This document shows positions 17,189 through 38,172 of a stretch of 64,000 nucleotides of DNA, one piece after another. The position numbers were made by a program, and so were the translations under genes. Below the pieces are notes generated by a model, which saw nothing but the letters and a program-made list of their open reading frames with translations, made no database searches and was not told where the DNA came from. The stretch's first letter is position 1; every line of letters starts with the position of its first letter. Origin of the DNA: Enteractinococcus helveticum. Its GTDB lineage: Bacteria; Actinomycetota; Actinomycetes; Actinomycetales; Micrococcaceae. Location of the stretch: assembly GCF_001657475.1 (NCBI RefSeq), contig NZ_LXEY01000019.1, forward strand, positions 62,001 through 126,000. Direction: 5' to 3'.

Positions 17189-17552
17189 TTTATATTCCAG
17201 GCTAATTTGAACCTCCTCACACCGCGCCCCGACTGCGTCGTGAATGTGGATAAACATCGCTGCGCAGGCAGTTATCCACAAAATAAACTGAGCCGTGGTT
17301 GCACGCTGTTGACTATGCTTCGCCACCTAATCGGGACTATGACCAAAGCGCTTGGCTATCTCACGTTGAGACCACCCTATCTCGGTGCATAAACGGCCTC
17401 TTGAAAGGGATCTTCATAAGTCTTGTCCAGCTCAGAAAACGACGAACTTTCCCATGCCAGGGCCGGTTGCAAAAGTCGATTAAGTGTGGTATTTAAATAT
17501 TTCACAAAGTGGTAATAGCCTGGTTCGGCAGTCGAAGAAAAGGAGAGTATGT
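17189..17552. other. Intergenic region with two perfect DnaA-box sequences and hsp20 promoter
   Basis: 364 bases without a clear gene. TGTGGATAA (17245-17253) and TTATCCACA (17272-17280) are perfect DnaA boxes in opposite orientation. Near the downstream end lies a promoter-like TTGCAA (17467-17472), 17 bases, TATTTA (17490-17495), suited to drive hsp20. No HspR (HAIR) or CIRCE operator was recognised. Confidence 0.5.
17467..17495 (+). promoter_or_regulatory. Putative sigma-70-type promoter of hsp20
   Basis: TTGCAA and TATTTA separated by 17 bases, about 58 bases before the hsp20 start codon. Inferred from hexamer match and position only. Confidence 0.4.
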
Positions 17553-33716: not shown

Positions 33717-33750
33717 TAGTGCCAGCATTTGACCGTTGAGAGGTCCCGAC

Positions 33751-34878
33751 ATGTTTAACTCTACATTTATTGGCTTGGATGTTCATGCCCGAACGGTGAC
33801 GGCCACGGCATTAAATACTGCTACTGGTGAGATCACCCAAGCCAGGATGACTGCCGACCCCACTGCAGTGACCGCGTGGGTGGAAGGGTTTGGGCCAGAG
33901 GTGCGAGTCACCTACGAGGCCGGGCCTAGCGGGTATGGGTTGGCCCGGCATTTGCTTGCCGGCGGTATTGATTGTGTCATCGCAGCTCCGTCGAAACTAC
34001 TGCGCGCCCCGGCAGATCATGTCAAAACTGATCGCCGCGATGCGCTGGGTTTGGCCAGAATGCTGTCGTTGGGTGAGATCACGCCGGTACGCATTCCCAC
34101 TGTGGAGCAGGAAGGATTGCGCGATGTTTCGCGGGCCCGGCACCGGGCGGTGACTGATCTGGCTCATGCTCGCCAGCGGATTAACGCGATGTTGTTGCGC
34201 CATGGCCTGCATTATGGAGACAAGGCCCGGTGGACTGGAGTGCATTATGCCTGGCTGGCTCGGCAACAACTGGAACCGCCCACCTCACAGATGGCCTTGA
34301 CCGCTGAACTGGAAACCGAAGCCTTATTGGCCGCGCATGTGCACCGTTTGGATGCCGATATCGCCGCGCTGGCCCAGGACTGCGAAGCCACCGCGGTGAT
34401 TCATGCGCTGATGTGCTTCCGAGGGATCTCGTTGACCACCGCCTTCGGGCTGGCCGTGGAGATTGGCGATTTCACCCGGTTTACCGGGGCCACCATTGGC
34501 GCGTATCTGGGGTTGGTGCCCTCGGAGCATTCCAGTGGCGGCTCCCGCAGCCAAGGCTCCATCACCAAAGCCGGTAACTCCTATGCCCGCAAACTGCTCA
34601 TCGAAGCCGCCTGGTCCCATGCCCGGCCCTATACTCGGCCCGGGGCCCGGCTGCGCAAACAACTCGACAAAGTCGATGCCGCCACCCGGATCCGGGCAAT
34701 CGAAGGCAACCAACGCCTCCACCGGGTCTGGACGAACTTTCAAGCCCGCAACAAGCGCAGCCTGAAAGCCAACACGGCAGTGGCGCGGGAACTGGCTGGA
34801 TGGTGTTGGTCAGTGGCCGCGCCCCTGCAACAAAACGCCATGACCTCGACCGCAGCGCAGGAGGCGCCAATGCGCTAG
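33751..34878 (+). CDS. IS110-family transposase
   Basis: Intact transposase of 375 residues from ATG 33751 (GAGAGGT upstream). The N-terminal RuvC-like DEDD domain starts FIGLDVHARTVTATALN and includes TYEAGPSGYGLARHL and KTDRRDALGLARML. The C-terminal Tnp_IS110 domain carries the serine region FRGISLTTAFGLAVEIGDF and GLVPSEHSSGGSRSQGSITK. No frameshift is seen, so the element may still be active. Element boundaries are not certain; noncoding flanks extend at least from about 33600 and to about 35190. Confidence 0.92.
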   Translation: MFNSTFIGLDVHARTVTATALNTATGEITQARMTADPTAVTAWVEGFGPEVRVTYEAGPSGYGLARHLLAGGIDCVIAAPSKLLRAPADHVKTDRRDALGLARMLSLGEITPVRIPTVEQEGLRDVSRARHRAVTDLAHARQRINAMLLRHGLHYGDKARWTGVHYAWLARQQLEPPTSQMALTAELETEALLAAHVHRLDADIAALAQDCEATAVIHALMCFRGISLTTAFGLAVEIGDFTRFTGATIGAYLGLVPSEHSSGGSRSQGSITKAGNSYARKLLIEAAWSHARPYTRPGARLRKQLDKVDAATRIRAIEGNQRLHRVWTNFQARNKRSLKANTAVARELAGWCWSVAAPLQQNAMTSTAAQEAPMR

Positions 34879-35263
34879 ACCCTATCAAACCTGCCTGCGG
34901 GCAGGAGTGGACGAGCCGAGGCAGCATCAGGAGCTGACCCGAGAGCAGCCTATGAGCAACCCGAACACCTGTTCAGGTCACGCTCGATTTTAGACCACGG
35001 GATGCTCCGGTTCGAATAATCGTCATGAGGTACCCAACCCTCGAATATCAGGCTGACCATGCTAGTCGACACGACGCGCCAGCTCGTCCACCCCTGCCAG
35101 CAGGAGCACCACTGCAGACCCCGGACCACACCGCACTAATCCGGGAAAATTTCATAGTGCCCCTTGACAAATAAACCCACATATCAGGCTGCGCGCGTAG
35201 CATTTCGAACTCGCGTTGACTCAAGACTGGGTGAACGCAGTCAATGATGGAAGAATAGCGCTC
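34879..35263. other. IS110 3-prime flank and ppiA upstream region
   Basis: 385 bases without a gene. Early on, CTGCC and GGCAG form a small hairpin near 34893. The 11-mer ATATCAGGCTG occurs twice (35045-35055, 35181-35191). A TTGACA (35164-35169) without a matching -10 may be an element-end promoter half. The right boundary of the IS110 element is probably within this region. The last 40 bases lead into ppiA. Confidence 0.4.
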
Positions 35264-35794
35264 ATGAGTATTGCTACACATAAAGCTGTCATCAAAACCA
35301 ACCGCGGCGACGTCGTCGTCGAACTGTTCGGTAACCACGCCCCCAAGACCGTGGAAAACTTCGTTGGCCTGGCCACCGGCACCAAAGATTGGACCGACCC
35401 GGCCACCGGTGAGGCGAAGTCCGGTGTCCCACTGTACGACGACACCATTTTCCACCGCATCATCTCAGACTTCATGATCCAGGGCGGAGACCCACTGGGC
35501 CGCGGCATCGGCGGACCGGGCTACCAGTTCGAAGATGAATTCCACCCAGAACTGGACTTCAACGAACCATATAAACTGGCCATGGCAAACGCTGGCCCAG
35601 GCACCAACGGTTCCCAGTTCTTCATCACCTCGGTTGCCACCCCATGGTTGCAGAACCGCCACACCATCTTCGGTGAAGTCACCGACGCCGACTCACAGAA
35701 GATTGTTGACGAACTGAATAATGTCCCAACCGGTCCACAGGACCGCCCGGTCAACGATGTGATCATCGAGACCATCGAAATCACCGAACTCTAA
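35264..35794 (+). CDS. ppiA: Peptidyl-prolyl cis-trans isomerase (cyclophilin)
   Basis: Cytosolic cyclophilin of 176 residues. Landmarks include FHRIISDFMIQGGDPLGRG (catalytic Arg region), GPGTNGSQFFITSVATPWL and HTIFGEV. ATG 35264 is used; its ribosome site (GGAAGA) is modest. The ppiA-rhomboid-crgA order is typical of the region near the actinobacterial replication origin. It is 15 bases before the rhomboid gene, probably co-transcribed. Confidence 0.94.
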   Translation: MSIATHKAVIKTNRGDVVVELFGNHAPKTVENFVGLATGTKDWTDPATGEAKSGVPLYDDTIFHRIISDFMIQGGDPLGRGIGGPGYQFEDEFHPELDFNEPYKLAMANAGPGTNGSQFFITSVATPWLQNRHTIFGEVTDADSQKIVDELNNVPTGPQDRPVNDVIIETIEITEL

Positions 35795-35809: not shown

Positions 35810-36781
35810 ATGTCATCCGGTCCAAGCTTTGGTGCCTACCACGACTCCTCGGCAGATCAGCCGACCTGTCCCAGGCATCCGGACCGGGTGACATATGTAC
35901 GATGCCAACGCTGTAACCGTCCGGTGTGTACGGACTGTCAGCGACCCTCACCGGTCGGTGTGCTGTGTGTTGACTGCGTCAGGCAACACCAGCGCTCGAT
36001 TCCGCGCGAGCAGCGCGCCCCACGGTTTACCGACCGACAGGGCAATGCGATTCCGCTGGCCACCTACATCATCATCGGGTTGACCGTGGTGGTGTACGGT
36101 CTGCAGTGGGCAGGCCAAGTCATCCCCAGTTTTCCGGATGTGTCTAGCCTGCTGATGTACTCTCCGCTACATACTTCGGTGGCGGCTCTAGAATTTTCTC
36201 AAGTCACCGGCCAGCCATTATTCCAACCCTGGCGCATGCTGACCTCGGCCCTGGTGCATTCGATGGGCTCACCGCTGCACCTGTTGTTGAATATGGCCGT
36301 GCTGTGGCTGATCGGTCGTCAGATTGAACAATTTCTGGGTGCCGCAAAATTTGTGGCCATCTATATTCTGTCGGCCTTCGGTGGGGCGGTAGCCGTCTTA
36401 TTCCTGGCCGAACCCAACTCGGCAGTTGTGGGAGCCTCCGGTGCGGTCTATGGCCTGTTCGCCGCACTGTGGATGATCGGACGACGCCTGGGTGCCGATA
36501 CCCGCAGCATCACCATTCTGATCATCATCAACTTCGCCTTCTCATTTATATTCTCGGGGATTTCCTGGCAGGGTCACCTGGGTGGTTTCCTCACCGGGCT
36601 GGCTGCTTCCACACCAGTGGTCCTGGCAGATAAGAAACTTGCAGCCGGTGCCACCCCAGAATTGCGCAAGCGCACCAACCGACTCACCTGGCTCGGCCTA
36701 GCGCTCGTCGCCGTCGTGCTCGTGGCCCTAGCGTTCATCGGCGCGCTGCTGATTGACACCCAAGCACTGCTTGGTCACTAG
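35810..36781 (+). CDS. Rhomboid intramembrane serine protease
   Basis: A 323-residue protein. The N-terminus carries a small Cys/His zinc-binding motif (CPRHPDRVTYVRCQRCNRPV, then CTDCQRP and CVDCV). Six or seven membrane helices follow, with the catalytic Ser in GASGAVYGLFAALW and the His in WQGHLGGFLTGL. It cleaves membrane proteins inside the bilayer; natural substrates in actinobacteria are unknown. Its stop directly precedes a DnaA-box cluster. Confidence 0.93.
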   Translation: MSSGPSFGAYHDSSADQPTCPRHPDRVTYVRCQRCNRPVCTDCQRPSPVGVLCVDCVRQHQRSIPREQRAPRFTDRQGNAIPLATYIIIGLTVVVYGLQWAGQVIPSFPDVSSLLMYSPLHTSVAALEFSQVTGQPLFQPWRMLTSALVHSMGSPLHLLLNMAVLWLIGRQIEQFLGAAKFVAIYILSAFGGAVAVLFLAEPNSAVVGASGAVYGLFAALWMIGRRLGADTRSITILIIINFAFSFIFSGISWQGHLGGFLTGLAASTPVVLADKKLAAGATPELRKRTNRLTWLGLALVAVVLVALAFIGALLIDTQALLGH

Positions 36782-36786
36782 CTCAC

Positions 36787-36918
36787 TGTGGACAAGTCGG
36801 CAGTTAACCACAGTTTTCCCACACGGTCTCCACAGGTTATCCACACAAATTGTGGATAACGCTGGCATGTTCAACCAATGCACAGAGTTATCCACAGATT
36901 TATACACAATGTGGAGAA
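36787..36918. promoter_or_regulatory. DnaA-box cluster
   Basis: Four sites match TT(A/G)TCCACA exactly: 36787-36795 (minus), 36837-36845 (plus), 36851-36859 (minus) and 36888-36896 (plus). Near-matches are TTAACCACA (36804-36812), GTCTCCACA (36826-36834) and TTCTCCACA on the minus strand (36910-36918). At least seven boxes fall within about 130 bases between the rhomboid and crgA genes. dnaA and dnaN are not in the window. Confidence 0.7.
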
Positions 36919-36953
36919 TTACATGTGTGTAACTTGGGGATAGCGGTGGAAAA

Positions 36954-37223
36954 CTACTGCCAGCGAGTCATCATGACGAAACCAACCATCGCCAAGCCGA
37001 AGCCGACGACGATATTCCACCCGCCAATACCCGGGATTGGCCACTGACCACCCGGGGCCAGGTAAAACACCATGATCCACACCAGGCCGAGGATCAACAA
37101 GCCAAACATAATGGCCTTGTACCAGACGGGCAGCGGCTCGGGCTGGTCATCAACCGCCATGAGGGCTGCGTCCAATTCGGATTGCTGATTGCGGGGCTTA
37201 CGGGGCTTCTTGGATGATGCCAA
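36954..37223 (-). CDS. crgA: Cell division protein CrgA
   Basis: An 89-residue membrane protein with a basic N-terminus (SSKKPRKPRNQQ) and two helices (VWYKAIMFGLLILGLVWIMV; NIVVGFGLAMVGFVMM) with PGGQWPIPGIGGWN between them, matching CrgA/UPF0233. CrgA recruits divisome and elongation proteins in actinobacteria. The start is TTG 37223 with AGGA upstream. It is divergent from the sortase gene. Confidence 0.93.
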   Translation of the reverse strand: MASSKKPRKPRNQQSELDAALMAVDDQPEPLPVWYKAIMFGLLILGLVWIMVFYLAPGGQWPIPGIGGWNIVVGFGLAMVGFVMMTRWQ

Positions 37224-37320
37224 TGGGAATCCTGTTCAATGCGGGAGCGTATACTAACGACAGTATTCTACGTGGCTATCTCACGTCCCGCAGTGTATCT
37301 TGACCTGAAGGATCAACTGA

Positions 37321-38172
37321 ATGTCAGATGCCGGTGTGCAACCGCTCTCGCGCCGTCAGGCGCACCATCAGTCCACCCGTCGAAAACGCCGCAAACGCCC
37401 ACCGCGCCCAACATTTCTGGGCGTCGTCGGCGAACTGCTCATCACCGCCGGACTCTTCGTCTTGTTATTTGTGGTCTGGGAACTGTACTGGACCAATCTC
37501 GGGGCCAACCGCGAAGCCCAGGCGCACCGCGAGACGATGACCGAATCATTTTCGGAACACTACACCGGCTTTGACGGCAACGGCGCAGACCCTGCGGTTC
37601 CGGGCGTGCCAGGGGAGGCATGGGGGCTGCTGTATGTGCCACGCTTCGGGCCGGACTACGCAGTCCCGGTGCTGGACGGTACCGGCACGGAAATCGACTC
37701 AGCCGTGCTGGGCCGCTACGAAAACTCGCCGGCCCCCGGTGCAGAGGGCAATCTCGGGCTGGCCGGGCACCGCCAAACCTACGGCGCGGTGCTCTGGGAC
37801 ATGGATCAGTTGCAAGAAGGCGACCGCATGTACCTGCAAACCGCCAACGGGTGGTGGGTCTATGAAACCCGCAAGGTCCACATCGTCCAACCCTCTGCAG
37901 TAGAAGTCTTAGACCCCAATCCGCTGGATCCCGGCGGCCCGGCCGATGGGCAATGGCTGACCTTGACCACCTGCCACCCGCCCTACACCGTGCTGGAGCG
38001 CATGATCACCCACGCTGAGCAGGTGGACTTCATCCCGCTGGCCGAGGGACCGCCGGCTGAGATCGCCGACGCCGTCAACACCGCAAATCTTGAACCCGAG
38101 CCCCAAGCCGGTATCCACACCCCAGAACATAATGACGCCGTTCTTCACCACGGCCTGAGCGAGGAGGCCTAG
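37321..38172 (+). CDS. srtE: Class E sortase
   Basis: A 283-residue sortase. A basic N-terminus is followed by one membrane helix (about 40-60) and the beta-barrel catalytic domain. The catalytic Cys lies in LTLTTCHPPYT; the His is in GLAGHRQTYG and the Arg in the LERM region. Class E enzymes attach LAxTG-type proteins to the wall in high-GC Gram-positives. GAAGGA precedes ATG 37321. A 53-codon membrane protein gene follows after one base. Confidence 0.92.
   Translation: MSDAGVQPLSRRQAHHQSTRRKRRKRPPRPTFLGVVGELLITAGLFVLLFVVWELYWTNLGANREAQAHRETMTESFSEHYTGFDGNGADPAVPGVPGEAWGLLYVPRFGPDYAVPVLDGTGTEIDSAVLGRYENSPAPGAEGNLGLAGHRQTYGAVLWDMDQLQEGDRMYLQTANGWWVYETRKVHIVQPSAVEVLDPNPLDPGGPADGQWLTLTTCHPPYTVLERMITHAEQVDFIPLAEGPPAEIADAVNTANLEPEPQAGIHTPEHNDAVLHHGLSEEA

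What the first reader, a model, noticed from the sequence alone, without database searches (positions are those of the whole stretch)
36787..36918. DnaA-box cluster between rhomboid and crgA
Four perfect and at least three near-perfect DnaA boxes lie within 130 bases in an origin-proximal type gene block, but dnaA and dnaN are not next to it. This is more boxes than expected by chance and could be a second part of oriC, a DnaA-titrating site like datA, or a regulatory region controlling crgA expression by DnaA.
Basis: partly seen in the sequence, partly recalled or inferred. Interest (0 to 1): 0.65.

Follow-up and report, generated by a model that had tools for sequence, protein, structure and literature searches.

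The report
Ancient DnaA-binding control site near crgA
Between two genes of an actinobacterium lies a short DNA element, recurring in many actinobacteria, that looks built to hold the replication starter protein DnaA away from the replication origin, and its apparent counterpart in mycobacteria is already known to bind DnaA.

Summary
The box cluster is real: 7 boxes in 132 bp at the stated coordinates (4 fit TTRTCCACA exactly, 3 with one mismatch). It is the only listed place in the draft genome with three exact TTATCCACA within 60 bp. It lies between the 3' ends of convergent rhomboid and crgA genes, so it is not a crgA promoter. Over 124 crgA loci, 121 exact boxes fall within 400 bp beyond the crgA stop; no locus has one in the 400 bp upstream. 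The cluster contains a 51-bp composite element: a palindrome (TTACACNNGTGTAA), then three boxes arranged -> 10 bp <- 12/13 bp <-. It recurs at crgA or rhomboid in many Actinomycetes and some genomes of other classes, and in this genus (Enteractinococcus) also upstream of dnaB. In three measurable genus members dnaA is 150-331 kb from crgA, so the site is unlikely to be part of oriC. The apparent M. tuberculosis counterpart (Rv0010c-Rv0011c) is a published DnaA-binding site affecting cell length. Best reading: a DnaA-control site, probably a sink or inactivator like datA. A DARS-like reactivator is the main rival, because the box geometry resembles the E. coli DARS core. DnaA binding and function in this organism are inferred.

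The parts
36782..36953 (.). spacer between the convergent 3' ends of rhomboid and crgA, 172 bp, GC 0.45
36883..36933 (-). composite element (profile R1 match, 47.4 bits): palindrome plus three DnaA boxes
   Evidence: the window is one of the 38 training sequences
36919..36932 (.). palindrome TTACACACATGTAA on the minus strand, consensus TTACACNNGTGTAA
36910..36918 (-). DnaA box 1 (TTCTCCACA), starts right after the palindrome
36900..36908 (+). DnaA box 2 (TTATACACA), convergent with box 1, offset 10
36888..36896 (+). DnaA box 3 (exact TTATCCACA), offset 12 from box 2
36851..36859 (-). DnaA box 4 (exact), first box of the second, genus-level triple
36837..36845 (+). DnaA box 5 (exact), convergent with box 4, offset 14 as in the E. 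coli DARS1/DARS2 stretches examined
36826..36834 (+). weak box (GTCTCCACA, two mismatches), offset 11 from box 5, closes the second triple
36804..36812 (+). DnaA box TTAACCACA (one mismatch)
36787..36795 (-). DnaA box TTGTCCACA (exact for TTRTCCACA)
36954..37223 (-). crgA (Pfam CrgA, E 1.4e-24), 3' end faces the element
35810..36781 (+). rhomboid-family gene, 3' end faces the element
35216..35794 (+). ppiA-type cyclophilin, part of the conserved neighbourhood

Best explanation
A chromosomal DnaA-control site. DnaA is expected to bind the convergent box pair and its third box cooperatively, next to a palindrome that probably holds a second DNA-binding protein. In 24 of the 38 relatives whose best element match (E<=1e-5) shares a contig with dnaA, it lies 13-25 kb from dnaA, so it is copied soon after initiation; doubling such a site would bind, and perhaps inactivate, DnaA and discourage a second firing (datA-like negative feedback). 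In this genus the crgA copy is 150-331 kb from dnaA where measurable and has a second set of boxes, while further element copies lie upstream of dnaB, 35-50 kb from dnaA. Shown here: the boxes, the element's architecture, its recurrence and its position. Shown by others for the apparent mycobacterial counterpart: DnaA binding in vitro and in vivo and a cell-length phenotype of site mutants. Inferred: DnaA binding in this organism, a partner protein, and the sign of the effect (sink or inactivation rather than reactivation).
For: 121 exact boxes 0-400 bp beyond the crgA stop, 2 in the 1200 bp before it, 0 of 124 loci with one in the 400 bp upstream, 1 reversed-pattern control (which corrects). 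Palindrome within <=2 mismatches in 52 of 124 loci against 13 of 2480 shuffles. R1 matches in 59 of 59 relatives at E<=0.1, 47 of 59 at E<=1e-5, and in 96 of 197 class genomes at E<=1e-5, 72 of the 85 whose crgA place was printed lying within 700 bp of it. Where crgA lies 115 and 128 kb from dnaA (G033, G014), or on another contig (G012, G013), an element is still 14-20 kb from dnaA. Literature: the apparent counterpart in M. tuberculosis and M. smegmatis is one of five DnaA-bound regions, another being upstream of dnaB; site mutants have longer cells (PMC7738170, section 9 and passages). B. subtilis and S. coelicolor DnaA-box clusters repress untimely initiation (cited in PMC4585315 and PMC5742627, passages).
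Against: No binding or function was tested in this organism. In this genus and in G009 (109 kb) the crgA copy is not close to dnaA, and G009 shows no match elsewhere at E<=0.1, which weakens the dosage argument; 14 of 38 measurable best matches lie outside 13-25 kb from dnaA. The E. coli datA stretch examined has widely spaced boxes and not this geometry. 101 of 197 class genomes have no R1 match at E<=1e-5; the four Streptomyces-like loci have boxes there but in another arrangement. Symmetric covariation in the palindrome barely exceeds shuffles (score reached by 30 of 500), so a bound dimer is not demonstrated. Nine mycobacterial matches lie in stretches without crgA, ppiA or rhomboid hits.
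Confidence: 0.55

Rival explanations
1. A DARS-like site: DnaA oligomers on the -> <- <- triple promote ADP release and regenerate ATP-DnaA, with the palindrome-binding protein in the role of IHF/Fis.
For: Order and orientation -> <- <- and the 12-bp tandem step equal those of the E. coli DARS1 and DARS2 stretches, which both read 14/12; the genus carries a second triple with 14/11-12 in 7 of 8 loci. DARS cores hold three DnaA boxes needed for nucleotide exchange, DARS2 with partner-protein sites (PMC4245941, passages).
Against: The widespread triple has a convergent offset of 10, not 14; offset 14 occurs once among the box pairs of the other 116 loci. Resemblance in short boxes can be chance, and the 14/12 readings in E. 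coli include boxes with 2 mismatches to the consensus used.
Confidence: 0.2
2. A chromosome-organisation site: DnaA and the palindrome-binding protein tether or position the origin domain, without changing DnaA activity.
For: Origin-side position in 24 of 38 measurable relatives; the palindrome is rare (2 matches with <=1 mismatch in 800 kb of G005 samples, one of them the element) yet also occurs within 2 mismatches in 5 of 8 genus oriC regions checked.
Against: parS sites, the known origin anchors (recalled), lie by dnaA and not here in G003, G005, G006 and G008; the M. tuberculosis phenotype resembles that of dnaA variants.
Confidence: 0.1
3. A transcriptional device: a bidirectional roadblock or terminator for the convergent rhomboid and crgA transcripts, or a regulator of crgA.
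For: Convergent genes; both strands of the spacer fold better than shuffles (z -5.0 and -5.2).
Against: Inverted boxes give hairpins automatically; no terminator- or promoter-like site was found in the spacer; in 9 of 9 intervals fetched where crgA is not next to rhomboid, the boxes stay by the rhomboid 3' end; flanking-gene expression is unchanged in M. tuberculosis dnaA mutants.
Confidence: 0.08
4. A second replication origin, or the distal half of a bipartite oriC.
For: Dense boxes; spacer GC 0.45 against 0.58 for the window.
Against: dnaA-dnaN spacer with its own cluster plus nearby parS in genus members; 150-331 kb separation, far beyond bipartite origins, which one review gives as up to about 2000 bp (PMC4285127, passages).
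Confidence: 0.04

Closest known systems
M. tuberculosis / M. smegmatis DnaA site Rv0010c-Rv0011c (PMC7738170; Rv0011c = crgA is recalled)
   Same: Adjacent to crgA; cluster with a small palindrome made of two DnaA-like boxes; the region upstream of dnaB is also bound. The paper says the site has no obvious correspondence in other species.
   Different: There the site is upstream of Rv0010c on the same strand as Rv0011c; here the neighbour is a convergent rhomboid gene. The parts of the paper read do not describe a class-wide element.
E. coli DARS1 and DARS2 core
   Same: Three boxes -> <- <- with a 12-bp tandem step; the genus-level second triple also has the 14-bp convergent step.
   Different: The widespread convergent step is 10 bp; no IHF or Fis site tested; that DARS sites are not origin-proximal is recalled.
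E. coli datA
   Same: Non-coding DnaA-box cluster outside oriC, proposed negative role.
   Different: datA boxes are far apart in the stretch examined; datA works with IHF (PMC4245941, passages).
S. coelicolor DnaA-box clusters (Smulczyk-Krawczyszyn 2006, not held; seen only as cited)
   Same: Actinobacterial box clusters near oriC that repress untimely initiation.
   Different: Whether one of the published clusters is the crgA spacer is recall (cosmid name), not tested.

Membership tests
Counterpart of the mycobacterial DnaA site at crgA | lies in the spacer at the 3' side of crgA | tested here: met
Counterpart of the mycobacterial DnaA site at crgA | same composite sequence as at crgA of mycobacterial genomes | tested here: met
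   (named Mycobacterium/Mycolicibacterium loci); M. tuberculosis itself was not fetched
Counterpart of the mycobacterial DnaA site at crgA | bound by DnaA | not testable with these tools
   published for mycobacteria only
DARS | three core boxes -> <- <- with offsets 14 and 12 | tested here: inconclusive
   widespread triple 10/12-13: not met; genus triple 14/11-12 in 7 of 8: met within 1 bp
DARS | promotes ADP release from DnaA | not testable with these tools
   needs purified DnaA
datA | box arrangement of E. coli datA | tested here: not met
datA | stimulates DnaA-ATP hydrolysis / lowers initiation | not testable with these tools
   needs assay
oriC | next to dnaA/dnaN and parS | tested here: not met
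   genus members; in this genome dnaA is on another contig
oriC | replication starts there | tested here: inconclusive
   skew in G005 uninformative

The most novel reading that the evidence does not exclude
A control element ancestral to much of Actinomycetota, with one defined layout (partner-protein palindrome plus -> <- <- DnaA triple), switches the activity of DnaA, and is duplicated upstream of dnaB in some genera. The 'cryptic' DnaA site found under convergent mutation in clinical M. tuberculosis would be its mycobacterial copy, so that drug-tolerant strains have weakened an ancient replication-timing switch.
Probability: 0.3. Interest if true: 0.82.

Novelty: new variant of a known kind. 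Interest (0 to 1): 0.62.

Why it matters
How actinobacteria limit DnaA is poorly known (recalled). A sequence-defined element with a fixed address gives a testable candidate, suggests a reason why a mycobacterial DnaA site without known counterpart exists, and offers a bait for finding the protein that binds the palindrome.

Tried and rejected
GC and AT skew over 40 stretches of 20 kb of G005 (about 27% of it), raw and corrected for coding strand at fourfold sites: best origin fit R2 0.02, dnaA 0.004, crgA 0.002; rejected as uninformative.

First spacer tally was wrong because the stop sign was included in the query; corrected. One search anchored crgA by tblastn and misplaced it in three loci (L029, L057, L142); one search repeats the counts from the Pfam places and its numbers are the ones used (119 became 121, 68 became 69, 78 became 80, palindrome 51 became 52; shuffles 12 became 13). 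Searches used the older anchors; one search repeats the pair counts with changes of at most one per class. A search for two exact boxes in the same direction within 30 bp found none in the genome.

Hairpin or RNA-gene reading: Rfam none in 36000-38000; folding z about -5 explained by inverted boxes. Palindrome as a structured stem: covariation not convincing. MtrA as binder of the palindrome: considered; the passages of PMC5487470 gave no motif to test. HigA2 of M. tuberculosis binds ATCAC-N6-GTGAT, including a site upstream of Rv0010c which its authors equate with the DnaA site (PMC11205783, passages); a lead, but nothing here shows it is a class-wide partner.

Paper searches (10) listed no paper that I recognised as describing the class-wide element; I judged by listings and by the passages read of nine papers. 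Most subscription papers are not held, so absence from print is not claimed beyond these searches.

Full report
OBSERVATION. The spacer 36782-36953 holds seven DnaA boxes with at most one mismatch to TTATCCACA within 36787-36918, three of them exact; the box at 36787 (TTGTCCACA) is exact for the actinobacterial form TTRTCCACA. In the window, 20 such boxes are seen against 9.25 expected. In 20,000 Markov sequences of the spacer's own composition none reached seven. In the whole draft genome (3.67 Mb, 117 contigs, completeness 98.96, contamination 6.11) there are 67 exact boxes against 13 for the reversed pattern; reading the printed list, this is the only spot with three within 60 bp, the dnaA-dnaN spacer having two.

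PLACE. Rhomboid (35810-36781, +) and crgA (36954-37223, -) converge on the spacer, so neither gene starts there. dnaA is on contig C108, the window on C19. In the three same-genus genomes with crgA and dnaA on one contig these are 150 kb (G003), 233 kb (G006) and 2602 kb apart along a single contig, or about 331 kb if it is circular (G005). parS sites lie about 5-9 kb from dnaA in G003, G005, G006 and G008; in this genome one of five is on the dnaA contig and four are on contig C103. In many other genera crgA is 13-25 kb from dnaA, with exceptions. Replication skew in G005 was uninformative.

CONSERVATION AT CRGA. I read 124 crgA loci: the window, the 56 other genomes with CrgA among the 59 of the relatives search, and 67 further class-wide loci out of 196 genomes with CrgA, namely 27 of the best-scoring ones and 40 picked by hand for variety from the rest of the list. 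With crgA placed by its Pfam match, exact TTRTCCACA boxes per 100 bp beyond the crgA stop number 57, 45, 13 and 6; the 1200 bp before the stop hold 2; the reversed pattern gives 1 in -1200 to +1200. At least one exact box within 400 bp beyond the stop: 69 of 124; in the 400 bp upstream of crgA: 0 of 124. Two or more boxes with <=1 mismatch: 80 of 124 against 4 of 124 (correcting). The 7 other same-genus loci with crgA and the window have 5-8 boxes in the spacer. Many family members without a box near crgA have no rhomboid match next to it; in the 9 such intervals fetched (of a larger group) the boxes or the palindrome and a profile match (E 1.6e-4 or better in 1.1 Mb) lie about 1.8-6 kb from crgA, by the rhomboid 3' end.

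THE ELEMENT. Downstream of crgA a palindrome TTACACNNGTGTAA is followed at once by boxes. Best match with <=2 mismatches in 52 of 124 loci; in 2480 block-shuffled copies 13. 74 of 124 loci have, on either strand, a palindrome with <=3 mismatches and at least one box within the next 48 bp (older anchors). From 38 of these 74, chosen by eye for a clean layout, I made alignment A1, consensus AATTACACnnGTGTAATTCnTCCCCAnTGGGGATAAnACCTGTGGATAACT, and a sequence-only profile R1. Box geometry: convergent pairs peak at offset 10, tandem pairs at 12-13, and convergent pairs again at the sum 22-23. In some loci the third box sits on the palindrome side, giving the mirror order. Within the genus the palindrome and the first box pair are nearly unchanged while the rest varies. 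The genus also has a second triple ->14<-11/12<- in 7 of 8 loci; the E. coli stretches taken as DARS1 (bioD-uvrB) and DARS2 (upstream of mutH, beside a primer given in PMC4585315) both read ->14<-12<-. The datA stretch does not share this. The places of DARS1 and datA are recalled.

HOW WIDE. R1 over 59 relatives (own included): a match in all at E<=0.1, in 47 at E<=1e-5. R1 over 197 class genomes: 96 at E<=1e-5; of their 96 best hits 85 have a printed crgA place, 72 of them within 700 bp, 5 at 0.7-10 kb, 8 farther or on another contig; 101 genomes have no match at that level, under the stricter filters of a large search. R1 over 119 phylum genomes: 22 at E<=1e-5, 14 of them outside the class; loci were given for 12 of those 14. 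I scanned one small ORF each in 8 of the 12 with Pfam and all 8 are CrgA, within about 400 bp of the element; the other 4 were not scanned, three of them (L253, L260, L262) showing the sortase neighbour and one (L264) dnaA. These searches use a profile trained on crgA loci. As a negative control, the 40 stretches of G005 give R1 matches up to E 1 only in the crgA (L097) and dnaA (L104) stretches.

SECOND COPIES. In the genus, element copies lie between dnaB and a yggS-like gene, upstream of dnaB: two in opposite directions in G000, G003 and G005, one above the threshold in G006 (L203-L206), 35-50 kb from dnaA in the five genomes where this could be measured; another genus (G024, L231) has one there too. 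The genus oriC contains the palindrome with 1-2 mismatches in 5 of 8 regions checked and a convergent box pair at offset 10 in some. Of 38 relatives whose best match at E<=1e-5 shares a contig with dnaA, 24 have it 13-25 kb away. Where crgA is 115 or 128 kb from dnaA (G033, G014), or on another contig (G012, G013), an element lies 14-20 kb from dnaA; G009 and this genus are counter-examples, with the best copy at crgA and far from dnaA.

MECHANISM. Published work on mycobacteria gives the direct link: DnaA binds five regions in vitro in M. tuberculosis, with homologous regions bound in vivo in M. [quoted passage not shown] convergent clinical changes, all but one, fall in a small palindrome of two DnaA-like boxes; site mutants have longer cells like dnaA variants; neither flanking gene changes in dnaA mutants; the authors name titration and nucleotide exchange as options (PMC7738170, section 9 and passages). 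Rv0011c being crgA is recalled. Box clusters near oriC repress untimely initiation in B. subtilis and S. coelicolor (cited in PMC4585315 and PMC5742627, passages). In E. coli position matters for datA and the DARS sites, and strong transcription through them harms their function (PMC5010248, abstract and section 10), which fits a place between convergent genes. I favour a DnaA sink or inactivator; the box geometry argues for DARS-like reactivation as the main alternative. Nothing here decides the sign.

NOVELTY. DnaA-box control sites are known, and the mycobacterial site is known. New here, as far as the ten paper searches show, are the class-wide composite layout, its address at the rhomboid/crgA spacer, its extra copies, and the link between these and the mycobacterial site.

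Noticed in passing
window 17245-17280: Two exact, oppositely directed DnaA boxes 27 bp apart between a HerA-like ATPase gene (Pfam DUF87) and an ORF that looks like a small heat-shock protein by eye (scanned on the wrong strand, so not confirmed); G003 (L208 near 1472-1508) has a similar pair with only weak sequence similarity. Not the composite element.
   Followed up: partly
L203-L206, L231, L243: One or two copies of the element between dnaB and a yggS-like gene, suggesting DnaA acts on dnaB in this genus and at least one other.
   Followed up: partly
L271, L278, L284, L286, L288, L298, L313, L328, L331: Mycobacterial matches to the element pattern in stretches without crgA, ppiA or rhomboid hits, in several different gene neighbourhoods.
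   Followed up: partly
G000 contigs C3, C6, C11, C109 position 23-31 and C108 23944-23952: Five contigs end 22 bases beyond an exact DnaA box, which suggests that the assembly breaks at a repeat carrying one; one of these contigs is the dnaA contig.
   Followed up: no
L207 near 1522-1546 (G000:C22:60722-60746): A further pair of exact, oppositely directed DnaA boxes; no profile match up to E 1.
   Followed up: no
window 33736-34878: IS110-family transposase gene beside ppiA, in a genus where the dnaA-crgA block has been split.
   Followed up: no
L001, L104, L198-L200: The element's palindrome also occurs in the dnaA-dnaN region of some genus members, within 1-2 mismatches (5 of 8 checked).
   Followed up: partly
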